DNA from: Anaerosoma tenue
GTDB taxonomy: Bacteria > Actinomycetota > Coriobacteriia > Anaerosomatales > Anaerosomataceae
Direction of reading: 5' to 3'
NCBI RefSeq assembly: GCF_023161965.1
Contig: NZ_JALNTY010000003.1
Location: 105,271 to 169,270 of the forward strand
Length of the DNA stretch: 64,000 bases
In this document: piece by piece, positions 53,633 through 63,699 of the stretch
Layout of the letters: each line of letters begins with the position of its first letter
Numbering within the stretch: position 1 is the stretch's first letter
The notes under the pieces: generated by a model
What the model was told of the DNA's origin: nothing
The model's input: the letters and a program-made list of their open reading frames with translations, nothing else
The model's database searches: none
Translations under genes and position numbers: made by a program

Positions 53633-55555
53633 TCACCAGAGGAGAGCGCGCGCCGAAGCACGGACCGGTCCGGTGAGAACCTGCGCTCCGCCCAGGTATC
53701 TGATCTCGTAGATCATGTCCTTGTGCTCCGAGAGCACCGCGCCCGCATCCGGACTGAGGCTGGTGCCGCGCGTGAGAAGCACCGGGCAGCAGTCGTTGCC
53801 CTGCAGCACCCCGCCGGCGAGCGCGTCGGGGAAGTCCTCGCCTGTCGTGAGCGCCGGGCGCGACATCAGCATGCCGAGACCATCGAAGCCCACCGTTGCG
53901 ACCTCCGCGGACGTCGCATAGCGGTTGGGACCCCAGATGCGCATGAAGCCCATGAACGGCGATGCGTCGAGCGTGTCGGCCACCCCCGTGCTCACGACCG
54001 CCGTGCCTCCGATGATGTAGCCGTGGTTCGACGGATTGCCGCCCCAGTCGTTACGGATCATGGCGTCAGCCACATCACCCGGAAGGGCGTCCGTGGGCGT
54101 GAGGTAGATCGGCCAGCCGTTCGCCGCCGCTATCGGTGCGGCCGACAAGGCGTCGGGGAAGTCGGCGCCCGTGCACACGAACGCGGTCCCGTCGTAGAGA
54201 GAGCCGCGCATCGCCTTCACCTCGGCCGCGATCTCGATGGCGGTCTCGTAGCGGTCGGCGCCGTCGAGCCGCGTGGCGATGTCCATGGAGGTGAGCGCCT
54301 TGGCGGCCTTCAGCACGTCATCGCTCACCGCCGCGGTACCGCCGAGGACGTAGACCCGCTTCGGGGCGAGCCGCGTGATCTCGGCTGCAACCGCCGAAGG
54401 CAACGCGTCCGGAGGCGTGAGCAGCAGCGGGCCCTGGACCGTGCCGGCCAATGCGGTGCCCCCGAGGGCGTCGGGCCAGTTGAACGCGGTGGCCAAGACC
54501 ACGATGTCGACACTTCCATCCACCGGATACGCCATCCGTGAGGCCTCCACCGCCGTCAGGAAGCGATCCGCTCCCGCCACCTCGGTCTCCTCGGTAGCCA
54601 CCGCAACGCTCCACTTGGAGATGCGGTGGTTCGCCGTGTCGGCGATGTAGACCGTCCGGTCGGGACCGAGGGCGATGCCACGCGGATGCGAGACCTGCAC
54701 GTCACCGGAGCCGAAGGAGGCGAAGACCCGCTCCGTCCCTCCTGCGGCATCGAACACCTGGACGCGGTGCCCGTCGGTCTCCACCACGAACGACCGGCCG
54801 ACGGGGTCGACCGCCACGCTCGCAGGCGTCAGGAAGTCACCGTACGCGATGCCGTGGCCACCCCAGCTGAGCACCGGCACGAGCGGATCCCCATCGTAGA
54901 CGACCACCGACTCGGTCAGGCCGCCCATCGTCCCGGTGGTGGTGTGGATCAGCCCGTCCTCCGAGACGTCGATACCGGTGGTGGGGGTGCCCTCGGGAAG
55001 CCATGTCCCGCACCCGTCTCCGTACGTGTTCCAGATCTGGAGGTTGCCGAGCAGCGTGTCCGTAAGATACACATGACCGTCAAGCGAAGCCCCGAGACCC
55101 ACGGGGGCGTCGATGGTCGTTCAACTCGCCGCCTCGTCGAACGGCGGACTCGGATTCGCAAGCAGCGCCTGATAACGGTTGACCAGCCCCCCGTTGCCCA
55201 TCTGCCCCACGTACACGTTCCCCCAGCGGTCGCACGCGAGCGACCTCGGCGATGAGAGCGGCTGCCCCGCCCATCCCACCGACGTCTTGCCAAGGAACGC
55301 GCCGTCGGGATCGAAGACCTGCACTCGCCGGTCCGCGGGATCCGACACACCGGTCACGTAGACGTGGCCCCACTTGTCCACCTCGACGTCCAGCGGACCG
55401 CTGAACTGCCCGTCGAGCGCGCCCTCGCTACCCCAGTTCCGTTCCCAGGTCACACCCGTAACCGGCACCGCGACGGCCCCGGGGGCAGGCATCACCGCGA
55501 ACATGACCGTGGTGGAAAGGAACGACAGTGCCAGAAGGCGAAGCGATCGCTTCAT
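53633..55555 (-). pseudogene. NHL-repeat and CWB2-repeat surface protein interrupted by an in-frame TGA
   Basis: The frame is continuous from the ATG at 55555 to 53633 except for one TGA at 55121-55123 (codon 145). The first part has a signal peptide (RSLRLLALSFLSTTVMFAVM) and NHL propeller repeats (VDKWGHVYVTG). The second part continues the propeller (SLDGHVYLTDTLLGNLQIW, DRTVYIADTANHRI). It ends in three CWB2 cell-wall-binding repeats, such as VAGADRFLTAVEASRMAYP and RVYVLGGTAAVS. Either the gene is inactivated, the TGA is read through, or a base is misread. A GTG at 55102 could restart translation but has no ribosome site. The intact protein would be a wall-anchored sugar- or protein-binding propeller. 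Confidence 0.8.
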
Positions 55556-55681: not shown

Positions 55682-57166
55682 TCAGGCCAGCGCGCGCACC
55701 GTTGGCGGAACCGGATCGAAGCCCGTGGCCGCCTCGAACGCCGCAGCCGCACGCAGGATCGTCGTCTCGGCGAAGTGGTCGCCGATGATCTGCAGCCCGA
55801 TCGGCAGTCCTGTCCCCGGACAGACTCCGCTTGGCACACTGATCGCGCAGTTCCCGGCAAGGTTCACCGGTATCGTGTACACATCGTTGAGGTACATCGT
55901 GAACGGATCAGACTTCTCGCCGAAGGTGAACGCCACCTCAGGCGTGGTGGGGGTGAGAAGCACGTCGAAGCGCTCGAACGCCGAGCGGAAGTCCTCGATG
56001 ATCCGTGTCCGGGCCTTCTGCGCCTGCCCGTAGTAGGCATCGTAGTAGCCCGCCGACAACGCATACGTGCCGAGCATGATCCTGCGGATGGTCTCCGGAC
56101 CGAACCCTTCGGCGCGTGAACGCGCGTAGAGGTCCGTCACGTCCTCCGCATCGGGAACGCGCAGACCGTACCGGATGCCGTCGAAGCGAGCGAGGTTGGA
56201 TGAGGCCTCTGCCGGCCCGATCACGTAGTATGCGGACAGCCCGTGCTTCGCACTCGGCAGATCCACCTCTCCCACCTCGGCGCCGAGCGAAGCGAAGGTC
56301 TCCGCGGCGGCCGCGACGCTCGCACGTATCTCCCGGCCGCAGCCGTCCATCTCGAGCATGTCGGTGACGAGACCCACGCGGAGTCCGGCAACGCCCCCCT
56401 CGAGGAGAGACCCGTACGGAACGACCGGCTCCGGTGACGACGTGGCGTCCATGGGGTCTTCGCCGGCGATCGCCTCGAGCGCCAGTGCCACGTCCTCCAC
56501 CGACGTGCCGAACGGTCCGATCTGGTCGAGCGAAGAGCCGAACGCCACGATGCCGTAGCGGCTGACGCGTCCGTACGTGGGCTTCAGGGCAACGGTCCCG
56601 GTGAGCGCGCCGGGCTGCCTGATCGAGCCGCCCGTGTCGCTGCCGAGAGAGATGCTGGTCATCCCTGCCGCCACGCACGCGGCGCTCCCGCCCGAGGAGC
56701 CCCCGGGCACGCGATCCAGGTCCCATGGGTTGCGTGTGGGCCCGAACGCCGAGTTCTCGGTCGACGAGCCGAACGCGAACTCGTCCATGTTGCACTTCCC
56801 AATGGGAAGCGCGCCCGCGTCGAGCAGGCGCCTGACGGCCGTGCAATCGTACACGCTCTCGTAGGTCTCGAGCATGCGGCTCCCGCAGGTCGTACGCGTA
56901 CCGAGCAGGTTCATGTTGTCTTTGAGGCCCGCGGGCACACCAGCGAGCGGCGGGAGCGGATTCCCGGCGGCGCGGGCGGCGTCGACACGCTCGGCCGCCT
57001 CGTACGCCAGCTCCGGCGTGAGCTGCAGGAACGCGTGCACGCGGTCATCCAGCGCCTCGACGCGTGCGTACGCGGCGTCCACCACCTCGCGTGCGGAGTG
57101 ATCGCCAGCGACGATCCCATCACGGACCTGCCGCGCACTGAGAGCCGAGAGGTCGAGGGTGCTCAT
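55682..57166 (-). CDS. gatA: Aspartyl/glutamyl-tRNA amidotransferase subunit A
   Basis: This 494-residue amidase-signature subunit releases ammonia from glutamine. The Ser-cisSer-Lys triad is visible: Lys in PAGLKDNMNLLG, and the Ser pair in VPGGSSGGSAACVAAG and LGSDTGGSIRQP. Its ATG overlaps the gatC stop by 4 bases. gatB is on the same strand but beyond the surface-protein gene. Confidence 0.96.
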   Translation of the reverse strand: MSTLDLSALSARQVRDGIVAGDHSAREVVDAAYARVEALDDRVHAFLQLTPELAYEAAERVDAARAAGNPLPPLAGVPAGLKDNMNLLGTRTTCGSRMLETYESVYDCTAVRRLLDAGALPIGKCNMDEFAFGSSTENSAFGPTRNPWDLDRVPGGSSGGSAACVAAGMTSISLGSDTGGSIRQPGALTGTVALKPTYGRVSRYGIVAFGSSLDQIGPFGTSVEDVALALEAIAGEDPMDATSSPEPVVPYGSLLEGGVAGLRVGLVTDMLEMDGCGREIRASVAAAAETFASLGAEVGEVDLPSAKHGLSAYYVIGPAEASSNLARFDGIRYGLRVPDAEDVTDLYARSRAEGFGPETIRRIMLGTYALSAGYYDAYYGQAQKARTRIIEDFRSAFERFDVLLTPTTPEVAFTFGEKSDPFTMYLNDVYTIPVNLAGNCAISVPSGVCPGTGLPIGLQIIGDHFAETTILRAAAAFEAATGFDPVPPTVRALA

Positions 57167-57465
57167 GAAGCATCCTCCCCGCCCGTGATCGCGGGCACCA
57201 CGAAGGCGGTACCGTCAGTCTCCGGCGCGTTCCTGAGCGCGTCCTCGCGCGAAAGGCCCGGCCGCACCACGTCAGCGCGCGTCCTGTTGGTCATCGCAAG
57301 CGGATGCGCGGTCGGCTCGACCCCCTCGAGGTCCAGTCTCCGCAACTCGTCGATATGGCCCAGCAGCGAATCGAGCTCGGCCGTCAGCGTATCCACCTGC
57401 TCGTTCGTCAGCGCCAGACGGGCAAGCATCGCTACGTGACAGACATCCGACTCGGTGATCGCCAT
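57163..57465 (-). CDS. gatC: Aspartyl/glutamyl-tRNA amidotransferase subunit C
   Basis: This 100-residue subunit stabilises GatA and links it to GatB. It has the family start VCHVAMLARLALTNEQVDTL, the helix LDSLLGHIDELRRLDLEGVE, PTAHPLAM and the C-terminal DVVRPGLSREDALRNAPET. It is first in the gatC-gatA operon. Confidence 0.94.
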   Translation of the reverse strand: MAITESDVCHVAMLARLALTNEQVDTLTAELDSLLGHIDELRRLDLEGVEPTAHPLAMTNRTRADVVRPGLSREDALRNAPETDGTAFVVPAITGGEDAS

Positions 57466-57628: not shown

Positions 57629-57856
57629 TTACCGCCCCGCGAGGATCCTGTCGGCACGCCCCGCTTCCGACGGGTACAGGTCCGACGGTACGCCGTCGCG
57701 GCCCAGCACCACGAAGACCATGTGCCGCGCGCACTTCATGTTGTCGGCGTTCGGTCCCGAGCAGTACTGCTTCTTCACCAGCTCGGCTGTCGAGGGCATG
57801 TTGCTCATCTGGTCATGAAAGAACGGGCACTTGGGCAGGCATTCGCAGTCGGCCAT
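57629..57856 (-). CDS. Cys-rich miniprotein, first of two tandem paralogues
   Basis: This 75-residue protein starts MADCECLPKCPFFHDQMSNM. Cys4, Cys10, Cys32 and Cys42 and His14 are shared with the neighbour at 57939. Common motif: C-x5-C-x-FFHD-x5-MPS, then YC-x4-ADN-x2-CAR and VP-x-DLYP-x-E/A. Four conserved Cys suggest a metal or Fe-S site. It has its own promoter (57904-57932). I recall similar short proteins in sulfate reducers but know no name or function. Confidence 0.75.
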   Translation of the reverse strand: MADCECLPKCPFFHDQMSNMPSTAELVKKQYCSGPNADNMKCARHMVFVVLGRDGVPSDLYPSEAGRADRILAGR

Positions 57857-57903
57857 CGGGGTCCCCCCTGTCGGTCTCGGCTCAGACATTCCGGCTGACC
57901 CTT

Positions 57904-57938: not shown

Positions 57939-58220
57939 TCAGAGGTCGTCTTCACCTCTTCCAGCACCCGGCCCTCCACGCACGATCGTGCTCGCCGGCA
58001 CGCCGGTGATGCCTTTCACCCGGTAGACCTCCGCCGGGTACAGGTCGTCCGGCACATCGCCGAGACCCACCTTCACGGCCACGATCCGCCGGGCACACCG
58101 CGTGTTGTCGGCCCACTCGCCCTCGCAGTACCGCTGTCTGAGCATGAGCGACATCGAGGGCATCTTCGCCAGTCGGTCGTGGAAGAACGCGCACGTGACG
58201 AGATGCTCGCACTCCGTCAT
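57939..58220 (-). CDS. Cys-rich miniprotein, second of two tandem paralogues
   Basis: This 93-residue protein starts MTECEHLVTCAFFHDRLAKM, with the same four Cys and His14 as its neighbour and a longer charged C-terminal tail ending GRGEDDL. The start at 58220 has AGGGGGG upstream. The two paralogues are 82 bases apart, separated by the promoter of the first, so they are a tandem duplication with independent control. Confidence 0.75.
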   Translation of the reverse strand: MTECEHLVTCAFFHDRLAKMPSMSLMLRQRYCEGEWADNTRCARRIVAVKVGLGDVPDDLYPAEVYRVKGITGVPASTIVRGGPGAGRGEDDL

Positions 58221-58269: not shown

Positions 58270-59346
58270 TCAGGCGGCGCCCGACACCAGGAACACGGCA
58301 GCCACGGTGATAGCGTTGTAGAGCGCATGGAGCGCGATCGGCGGCCACAGGCTGTCGGTCCGCTCGGCCAGCCACCCCAAGACCACACCGAGCACGAACA
58401 TCGGGAACAGCAGCCACCAACTGCGGTGGAAAGCCGCGAACAGCGCCGCCTGAAGGACGATCCCGGGCCACATGCCCGCTCGCGCCGCGATGCCCTCCTG
58501 CAGCGCGCCCCGGAACACCGCCTCTTCCACCACGGGACCCACGAGCACCACCATGAGGATCGCCAGGACGAGGCCCACCTCGTCGTTGCCGAAGAGCGTC
58601 AGCATGTCGGTGCCCGAGCGCGGGAGCAGCCCGATCTCACGTGTGACGTAGGCGTACGCCGAGGCCACCGAACGCGTGAGGGCGAGACCGCCGATCACCA
58701 GGCCGACCGAGACGGCCACACCGCGGAACGTCCGCGACTCATGCCGGAGGCCGAGCGCGGCCAGAACGTCCCCTCCCCTTCGTCGCACAAGCCAGACGAT
58801 CACCCCGATCTGCGCGGCGTAGTAGAGCGCAAGGACCGACACCCGCAACGGCAATCGGGCGCCCGGCCCGAGCGTCTCGACCCACCCGATGCTCGACAGC
58901 GCCTCCTTCACCATGAACATCGAGAAGGTGACCGATAGCATCGCCGCCGCCTCGAGAAGCGTCCACTGGAAACCGCCGCGCGACCCGCCCCTGGAAGTTC
59001 GCTTCACGGCGGCCGCCTCTTTCCGCGCGGCCGTCTCCTTCCGGGCCTGGGCGCTCCTCGCGCGCGGCGTGCCTGATGCCGTTGCTGTCGCGCCGCTTCT
59101 CTTGCGCGGCGCGGGCTCCGGGCGCGACCGCTCCCCGCCCGCACCGGCGGTCCGCTGTTCCGGCCTCGACACGATCGCGCGACGAGGGCATGCCTTCGCG
59201 CAGGCGCCGCACCCGTCGCACCGCTTCCAGTCGACCTGCAGGTACGTCCTGCCCACCCGGAGAGCGTCATGCGGGCAGACGGCGAGACACGCGCCGCAAC
59301 GGTCGCACGCGCGTGGGTTGAGCGAGAGCGGTGGCCTCTGCTTCAC
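58270..59346 (-). CDS. Ferredoxin-CPBP intramembrane protease fusion
   Basis: This 358-residue protein has residues 10-57 as a two-cluster ferredoxin (Cys14/17/20/24 and Cys43/46/49/53, each CX2CX2CX3C with Pro after the last Cys). Residues 61-125 are a positively charged Ala/Arg/Lys linker. Residues 128-358 are a CPBP (CAAX/Abi-type) membrane protease with about seven helices. Catalytic residues are EEAVFRG (Glu274, Glu275, Arg279), FAAFHRSW (His307) and HALYNA (His340, Asn344). The ferredoxin lies on the cytoplasmic side. CPBP proteins cleave within membranes or act as scaffolds. Redox control of the protease, or an electron input to the membrane part, is inference. Both ends lack a frame break, so the fusion looks real. 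Confidence 0.85.
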   Translation of the reverse strand: MKQRPPLSLNPRACDRCGACLAVCPHDALRVGRTYLQVDWKRCDGCGACAKACPRRAIVSRPEQRTAGAGGERSRPEPAPRKRSGATATASGTPRARSAQARKETAARKEAAAVKRTSRGGSRGGFQWTLLEAAAMLSVTFSMFMVKEALSSIGWVETLGPGARLPLRVSVLALYYAAQIGVIVWLVRRRGGDVLAALGLRHESRTFRGVAVSVGLVIGGLALTRSVASAYAYVTREIGLLPRSGTDMLTLFGNDEVGLVLAILMVVLVGPVVEEAVFRGALQEGIAARAGMWPGIVLQAALFAAFHRSWWLLFPMFVLGVVLGWLAERTDSLWPPIALHALYNAITVAAVFLVSGAA

Positions 59347-59386: not shown

Positions 59387-61522
<2,136 letters not shown>

Positions 61523-61857: not shown

Positions 61858-62589
61858 TCAGCGGTCAGCGGGCCCCACGTTCACACGGCCGCGGAAGCCC
61901 ACGCGGTCGCCCGCGATCACCACTGCTCCCCGCACGCCTCTCACGCTCATCGCCCGGTCGAGCGCGCGCTCCACATCGTCGGCGCCGTGCACCACGTTCC
62001 CGGCGGCCGTGGCCACCGCGTCCGCCAGCGCGCCGTCATCGGCAAGCACCGTCACCGCGTGCGCAGTGCCGAGGCTCACACTATGCCCTACTTTCCCCGA
62101 TGATGTGCATACGGCCACCGGGAGGTCGGCGGCATCGAGATGGACGGCGACCCTGCCCGAGAGCGGGGAGCCGCCCGCCACCACGAGGACACGCCTCGGC
62201 ATCTCCCCGCAGAGGTACAGATCGCCACCGTTCTCCACGATCACCTCACGCGAACGCGTCTGCAGACCCCGGGCGACCCGCTCAGCGATCGCGCCCGCGA
62301 CCGCTGCCATCGGACCGGTCCCGGCTTCCCGCGCGGCGGCTGACATCGCTCGGACTATCTCAGGCGCCCCCTCCCCGGCGTCGACCGGCACGTAACTCTC
62401 GGCCCAACGGGGGTGAGCCGAGATATGGCCCTCGAGGTCGGCCCGGAGCCCCGCTACGAGCGTCTCCGTCTCACCGCGCAGGTCGGTGCGGGCGCTCACA
62501 TGAAGGTCCGTCTCGCCCTGCGCGCAGGTGAACGAGACGAGGCCGGCGGCGTCCATGTCCAGGCGGTATGTCCTTGGCTCCCATCGCAT
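61858..62589 (-). CDS. UPF0280/ApbE-like protein
   Basis: This 243-residue protein has the UPF0280 features GTGPMAAVAGAIAERVARGL, VIVENGGDLYLCG, VCTSSGKVGHSVSLG and AAGNVVHGADDVE. The fold resembles ApbE flavin transferases, with which it shares a Gly-rich region. Family members occur next to methanogenesis and redox genes in other organisms. Its function is unknown. Confidence 0.8.
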   Translation of the reverse strand: MRWEPRTYRLDMDAAGLVSFTCAQGETDLHVSARTDLRGETETLVAGLRADLEGHISAHPRWAESYVPVDAGEGAPEIVRAMSAAAREAGTGPMAAVAGAIAERVARGLQTRSREVIVENGGDLYLCGEMPRRVLVVAGGSPLSGRVAVHLDAADLPVAVCTSSGKVGHSVSLGTAHAVTVLADDGALADAVATAAGNVVHGADDVERALDRAMSVRGVRGAVVIAGDRVGFRGRVNVGPADR

Positions 62590-62655
62590 GGGTTCATGGT
62601 ATCAGTCCTGCGGGGATACACTGGACAGAAGAGGTGTCGACGAAGGGCTCCTGAC

Positions 62656-63699
62656 ATGCGAGAGATCCTGGACGTGTGCGTGAAGATGGACCGGTTCGCC
62701 GAGCGGCTCTACGCGGCACTTGCCGAGCAGTGCCCGGAGCCCGGGCTCGCCACTACCTTCTCACGCCTTGCCGCGGACGAAGCCCAGCACACCGGATGGT
62801 GGGAAGGGCTGCTCGAGGCATGGGAGCACGGGCTCCTCCCCGACCTCGTGAACGACACCACCGGACTCGCGGAGCGCCTGACCGACGTGCACGACGAACT
62901 CTCACGTATCGACCTCGGCTCGATCGGCGAGCTCGACGTGGAGAGGATGCTCGCACTCGCCGCGCGTGTGGAGTTCTTCATGATCGACCCGGTCTTCAGC
63001 GAACTCATCGAGTTGACCGAACCCGCACAGTCGGAGCATCGCCACGCGGCCTACCAGGCGCACATCCAGCGGCTCGTGAACGAGATCGCCGCGCGCTACC
63101 CCGACGACTCCCTTGCCGCGCTCCTGGCATCCTCGTTGTCGCGCTCCTGGAGGGACAACCGGCGGCTGTCCGTCTACGCCACCCACGACGCGCTGACGGG
63201 ACTCTACAACCGCAGAGCGCTCTACACGCACCTGCCACAGTGGACCGCATGGTCGGCCCGGTACGGGCACCCTCTCGCGGTGCTCCTCATCGACATCGAC
63301 CGCTTCAAGGACATCAACGACACGCACGGCCACGCCGTCGGCGACCGCGCGCTCGCGTCGATCGCCCAGGCCATGCGCCATGTCACACGGGCGTCCGACC
63401 TCGTCGTCCGATACGGCGGCGACGAGTTCGCCGTGATCGCCCCGGAGACCGGCGTCAGCGAATGCGTGGATCTTGCGAACCGTATCGTCGAGGCGATCCG
63501 GCAGGTGAGCGTCAGCGCCGATGATGGCTCTGCCATCCCGCTCACGGTGAGCATCGGCAGCGCGGTGGCGCACGACGTCGCCGGCAGCCCGCCGTACCGT
63601 GTAGAGAGCCTGCTCGCGGCGGCCGACCAGGCACTCTACAGCGCCAAGAGCGCCGGCCGCGACCGGGCGGCCGATCCGCTCACCGTCGAACGGGTCTGA
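62656..63699 (+). CDS. Diguanylate cyclase with N-terminal ferritin-like domain
   Basis: This 347-residue protein has residues 1-150 as a four-helix ferritin/rubrerythrin-like domain. Asp12-x6-Tyr19 and Glu42-x2-His45 (in ADEAQHTGWW) resemble the first diiron half-site, and Glu127-x2-His130 (QSEHRHAAY) the second. A linker (150-175) leads to a full GGDEF domain with GGDEF at 254-258 and an inhibitory RxxD at 245-248. It should make c-di-GMP in response to a redox or iron/oxygen signal; the sensor role is inference. The ATG at 62656 has AAGGG 8 bases upstream. It stands alone on the plus strand. Confidence 0.85.
   Translation: MREILDVCVKMDRFAERLYAALAEQCPEPGLATTFSRLAADEAQHTGWWEGLLEAWEHGLLPDLVNDTTGLAERLTDVHDELSRIDLGSIGELDVERMLALAARVEFFMIDPVFSELIELTEPAQSEHRHAAYQAHIQRLVNEIAARYPDDSLAALLASSLSRSWRDNRRLSVYATHDALTGLYNRRALYTHLPQWTAWSARYGHPLAVLLIDIDRFKDINDTHGHAVGDRALASIAQAMRHVTRASDLVVRYGGDEFAVIAPETGVSECVDLANRIVEAIRQVSVSADDGSAIPLTVSIGSAVAHDVAGSPPYRVESLLAAADQALYSAKSAGRDRAADPLTVERV

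What the first reader, a model, noticed from the sequence alone, without database searches (positions are those of the whole stretch)
58270..59346. Ferredoxin fused to a CPBP intramembrane protease
One frame joins two intact CX2CX2CX3C clusters to a CPBP domain with all expected catalytic residues (Glu274/Glu275/Arg279, His307, His340/Asn344). I do not know a described redox-linked CPBP enzyme. The ferredoxin part could gate the protease by oxidation state or feed electrons to a membrane reaction.
Basis: partly seen in the sequence, partly recalled or inferred. Interest (0 to 1): 0.75.

Follow-up and report, generated by a model that had tools for sequence, protein, structure and literature searches.

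The report
Ferredoxin fused to intramembrane protease
In one order of mostly uncultured actinobacteria, a complete iron-sulfur electron-carrier domain is permanently joined to a complete membrane-embedded protease, which suggests a membrane protease controlled by the redox state of the cell; no such enzyme was found described in the papers that could be searched.

Summary
Window 58270-59346 (-) is one 358-aa frame. It holds a clostridial-type 2[4Fe-4S] ferredoxin (Cys 14/17/20/24 and 43/46/49/53), a basic linker, and a CPBP/Rce1-like membrane domain with E274, E275, R279, H307, H340 and N344. It is neither an artefact nor a singleton. Of 69 genomes of the same order, 63 hold the orthologue and 56 carry the whole ferredoxin in the same frame; in 3 more genomes the evidence is cut by contig ends. 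All six catalytic residues and the exact 29-residue cluster register hold in 56/56. The ferredoxin is under purifying selection (dN/dS about 0.1) while the linker drifts. Orthologues at the same ligA-gatC locus in other orders of the class lack it, so one gain plus a few losses fits. No fusion was found in 45 genomes sampled from the rest of the phylum. The gene usually abuts or overlaps ligA. The membrane part has no conserved Cys and no conserved His beyond the catalytic ones, so an electron-accepting site there is unlikely. Redox gating of the protease, or recruitment of redox clients to it, fits better than electron delivery. Cluster binding, activity and substrate are untested. New variant of a known kind; worth a bench test.

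The parts
58270..59346 (-). ferredoxin-CPBP fusion gene, 358 aa, GTG start
59167..59331 (-). 2[4Fe-4S] ferredoxin domain, residues 6-60
   Evidence: Pfam Fer4 1.2e-14; profile matches Clostridium ferredoxin 1clf and other solved 2[4Fe-4S] proteins
59275..59307 (-). first CX2CX2CX3C motif, Cys14-Cys24
59188..59220 (-). second CX2CX2CX3C motif, Cys43-Cys53, 29 residues after the first in 56/56
58966..59166 (-). basic, low-complexity linker, residues 61-127; variable in length and sequence
58273..58965 (-). CPBP/Rce1-like membrane domain, residues 128-358; Pfam core 258-346
58510..58527 (-). EExxxR motif (E274, E275, R279)
58426..58428 (-). catalytic H307 (FxxxH motif)
58315..58329 (-). HxxxN motif (H340, N344)
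59387..61516 (-). ligA (NAD-dependent DNA ligase), conserved upstream neighbour
   Evidence: Pfam; 50 of 60 loci
57163..57465 (-). gatC, conserved downstream neighbour
55682..57166 (-). gatA, conserved downstream neighbour
   Evidence: (38 of 60 loci)

Best explanation
A membrane-embedded glutamic protease of the CPBP/Rce1 family whose cytosolic N-terminus is a 2[4Fe-4S] ferredoxin on a flexible basic tether. SHOWN: both parts complete, co-conserved, gained once in the order's ancestry (or lost in its sister lineages) and kept under selection, in tight linkage with ligA. INFERRED: the clusters assemble; the domain sits in the cytosol, on the side of the catalytic Glu-Glu (positive-inside pattern); and its redox or cluster state controls access to, or activity of, the protease, so that a membrane protein is cut according to the state of the low-potential electron pool or to oxidative damage. 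The substrate is unknown.
For: All eight Cys with exact clostridial-type spacing and all six catalytic residues in 56/56 proteins as little as 34-40% identical to the window's. Ferredoxin dN/dS about 0-0.2 against mostly 0.13-0.9 in the linker, so the domain is used. Orthologues at the same ligA-gatC locus in other orders have all catalytic residues and no ferredoxin, so the protease does not need it for catalysis and it was added, as a regulatory domain would be. No conserved Cys, and no conserved His beyond the catalytic two, in the membrane part. Positive-inside pattern: N-terminus and linker about 23 K/R per protein, alternate loops poor. The two cultured Anaerosomatales, probably this order, are obligate anaerobes with pyruvate:ferredoxin oxidoreductase and autotrophic CO2 fixation (PMC9686372).
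Against: No experiment. No substrate, anti-sigma factor or redox gene is conserved beside it; the conserved neighbours are housekeeping genes. Five genomes of the order have lost the ferredoxin but kept the protease. The linker is not conserved, so a defined allosteric interface is not visible. The structure model is too poor to show any contact between the domains.
Confidence: 0.4

Rival explanations
1. The ferredoxin is a recruiting arm: it docks onto ferredoxin-using enzymes or membrane redox complexes and brings the protease to them, for quality control or maturation of a subunit. The clusters are needed for the fold, not for sensing.
For: Long flexible tether; ferredoxins dock transiently on many enzymes (established knowledge). 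Rhomboid intramembrane proteases do quality control of orphan membrane subunits (title and abstract of PMC7232013).
Against: No conserved neighbour is a redox complex.
Confidence: 0.22
2. A tethered electron carrier: the ferredoxin delivers electrons to a reaction at the membrane, with the CPBP domain as anchor or substrate channel.
For: Two intact clusters in the exact clostridial-type register are what electron transfer needs.
Against: Membrane part has no conserved Cys, no conserved His beyond the catalytic pair, and all protease residues are invariant. Orthologues exist without the ferredoxin.
Confidence: 0.15
3. A structural metal-binding knob: the domain folds around clusters (or zinc) and stabilises or localises the protein, with no redox role.
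For: Some lineages lost it without losing the protease.
Against: Both clusters with all eight ligands and exact spacing are kept in 56/56 across about 15 families; a structural role would need only one metal site.
Confidence: 0.15
4. The CPBP part is not a protease but a chaperone-like or acyl-transfer helper, as argued for LnsB.
For: LnsB, remotely like CPBP, works in lipoprotein N-acylation (PMC7387801).
Against: LnsB has lost the CPBP motifs (same paper); here every catalytic residue is invariant.
Confidence: 0.08

Closest known systems
CPBP glutamic intramembrane proteases (Pfam PF02517; MmRce1, Rce1)
   Same: EExxxR, FxxxH, HxxxN motifs and multi-helix membrane domain
   Different: Rce1-type proteins have no ferredoxin; this one carries a complete 2[4Fe-4S] domain on a tether
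C-terminal sorting proteases MrtX / MrtJ / MrtS (CPBP)
   Same: Same catalytic motifs; NCBIfam MrtJ 54.2 bits, MrtS 47 bits
   Different: Both below their curated cut-offs (75 and 130); no ferredoxin; no sorting-tag substrate beside it
Clostridial-type 2[4Fe-4S] ferredoxins and polyferredoxins (1clf, MvhB, RnfB)
   Same: Two CX2CX2CX3C motifs 29 residues apart; profile aligns with 1clf residues 6-51 without length change
   Different: Here fused to an intramembrane protease; Pro after the fourth Cys often missing

Membership tests
CPBP/Rce1-like glutamic intramembrane protease (PF02517) | Sequence match over Pfam gathering score | tested here: met
   80.2 bits against 22.4; 55 of 55 aligned members match at E<=0.001
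CPBP/Rce1-like glutamic intramembrane protease (PF02517) | Catalytic EExxxR, FxxxH, HxxxN | tested here: met
   E274/E275/R279, H307, H340/N344; the six residues invariant in 56/56
CPBP/Rce1-like glutamic intramembrane protease (PF02517) | Polytopic membrane domain with motifs in helices | tested here: met
   About seven hydrophobic segments, alternating charge; fold itself not confirmed (poor model)
CPBP/Rce1-like glutamic intramembrane protease (PF02517) | Proteolytic activity | not testable with these tools
   needs purified protein and substrate
2[4Fe-4S] ferredoxin (clostridial type) | Two CX2CX2CX3C motifs in the short spacing | tested here: met
   29-residue register in 56/56; same length as 1clf over the match
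2[4Fe-4S] ferredoxin (clostridial type) | Binds two clusters of low potential | not testable with these tools
   needs EPR/UV-vis
MrtJ / MrtS / MrtX C-terminal sorting proteases | NCBIfam score over curated cut-off | tested here: not met
   MrtJ 54.2 of 75, MrtS 47 of 130; MrtX model not among the 25 families shown
MrtJ / MrtS / MrtX C-terminal sorting proteases | Substrates with a shared C-terminal tag | tested here: inconclusive
   No shared tail in 49 long ORFs of the window; the rest of the genome was not scanned

The most novel reading that the evidence does not exclude
The first redox-switched intramembrane glutamic protease: a covalently tethered 2[4Fe-4S] ferredoxin reports the reduction state of the cell's ferredoxin pool (or oxygen damage) straight to an intramembrane active site, so that regulated cleavage in the membrane follows low-potential electron supply in strict anaerobes.
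Probability: 0.35. Interest if true: 0.85.

Novelty: new variant of a known kind. Interest (0 to 1): 0.55.

Why it matters
How bacterial CPBP proteases are controlled is largely unknown, and prokaryotic members are described as largely unexplored (PMC11980579). A single-chain protein that carries both a redox cofactor domain and the protease makes redox control of intramembrane proteolysis directly testable with one purified protein. It also gives uncultured, ferredoxin-dependent anaerobes a candidate redox-to-membrane signal.

Tried and rejected
Assembly artefact or frameshift junction: rejected, 56 genomes. Chance Cys motifs: rejected. Split ferredoxin gene beside ferredoxin-less orthologues: none found in the fetched loci. 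Electron-accepting Cys or His in the membrane part: none conserved. Tandem CPBP partner as an obligate subunit: absent from this genome, which has one PF02517 protein only, and it forms a separate ferredoxin-less clade. AlphaFold2 with three sequences: pLDDT 41.6, pTM 0.22, so no fold search was run on it. Four large class or phylum searches gave no answer; smaller ones did. Plasmid collection: no fusion.

Full report
WHAT IS THERE. The frame 58270-59346 (-) has an in-frame stop five codons before its GTG and encodes 358 residues. Pfam gives Fer4 at 1.2e-14 and Rce1-like (PF02517) at 1.4e-22. It is the only PF02517 protein of its genome.

CONSERVATION. Of 69 genomes of the same order held, 63 have the orthologue at E<=1e-18. 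I fetched the loci and read the frames: 56 carry both clusters in the same open frame as the protease. Three more genomes show contig-end cases: in G012 and G030 the ferredoxin part and the CPBP part lie at the ends of different contigs, and in G053 a ferredoxin with its linker ends at a contig end without a CPBP hit beside it. Five lack the ferredoxin: G038, G056, G042, G045, G058. None of the fetched members has a half or decayed ferredoxin by the motif. In the 56, all eight Cys, the 29-residue register between motifs, and E274/E275/R279/H307/H340/N344 are invariant. In an alignment with 40% mean column identity the invariant columns are the eight Cys, these six residues and seven others: M1, A57, W128, G253, G258, P315, G320. 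Caveat: members were called fused by the Cys motif, and the frame reading anchored on EExxxR, so the Cys invariance is partly by construction; that of H307, H340 and N344 is not.

SELECTION. In 14 pairs of relatives (Nei-Gojobori), dN/dS of the ferredoxin is 0 to 0.22, close to or below the membrane part (0.05 to 0.29), while the linker runs mostly from 0.13 to 0.9 (some dS values near saturation, one linker undefined). The ferredoxin is thus kept for use.

ORIGIN. The gene sits between ligA and gatC/gatA in most loci. The same ligA-CPBP locus occurs in other orders of the class, with gatC-gatA beside it in some of them, but there the CPBP protein has no Cys motifs. A maximum-likelihood tree of the CPBP part puts the eight other-order proteins on one side of a strong branch, and a tandem ferredoxin-less partner (present in 16 loci, 14 used in the tree) in another clade; the ferredoxin label needs 7 changes, two of which are the contig-end cases. 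One gain in the stem of the order and a few losses is the simplest reading; loss in the sister orders is not excluded. In 45 genomes of the rest of the phylum the protease matches never include the ferredoxin. Other phyla were not sampled.

COUPLING. In loci without the partner, the gap from ligA stop to the start of this gene is mostly -4 to +40 bases, and from partner stop to this gene mostly exactly -4. In the window it is 40. Co-transcription is likely (inference).

HOW IT MAY WORK. Average hydrophobicity gives about seven membrane segments. Basic residues are rich in the N-terminal part with linker (about 23 per protein), the loop 181-214 and the loop after EExxxR, and poor in the alternate loops. 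This places the ferredoxin in the cytosol, on the side of the catalytic Glu-Glu. The membrane part has no conserved Cys (at most 9 of 56 in any column) and no conserved His other than 307 and 340, so it has no visible site to take electrons for redox chemistry of its own. The protease site is equally conserved with and without the ferredoxin. A regulatory or recruiting role of the ferredoxin is therefore more likely than a catalytic one. Redox gating is my first choice; recruitment to ferredoxin-using complexes is second.

ORGANISM. Public MAG relatives are titled Actinomycetota. Class and order by inference: Coriobacteriia, probably Anaerosomatales (formerly OPB41; lineage), whose two cultured strains are obligate anaerobes with pyruvate:ferredoxin oxidoreductase and autotrophic CO2 fixation (PMC9686372).

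LITERATURE. Five searches of open-access full texts for CPBP/CAAX/PF02517 with ferredoxin, 4Fe-4S, iron-sulfur or Fer4 found no description of such a fusion or of a redox-linked CPBP enzyme. Absence from that library is not proof of novelty, and database architecture pages could not be consulted.

VERDICT. A real, conserved, lineage-restricted domain fusion of two known families; function inferred only. New variant of a known kind, moderately high interest because it is directly testable.

Noticed in passing
57939-58220 and 57629-57889 (-): Two small, similar Cys-containing proteins (CxxLxxCxFFHD...YC...CAR type), no Pfam match, between the fusion gene and gatC.
   Followed up: partly
62413-63699 (+): GGDEF protein with a weak rubrerythrin/ferritin-like match at its N-terminus: a possible iron- or oxygen-responsive diguanylate cyclase.
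   Followed up: no
L047-L054, L060, L064, L067, L068, L070, L073, L089: A second CPBP protease without ferredoxin lies just upstream of the fusion gene, mostly with a 4-base overlap, and forms its own clade.
   Followed up: yes
53633-55102 (-): Secreted-looking repeat protein (NHL-like repeats followed by what look like cell-wall-binding repeats), possible surface protein; read by eye only.
   Followed up: no
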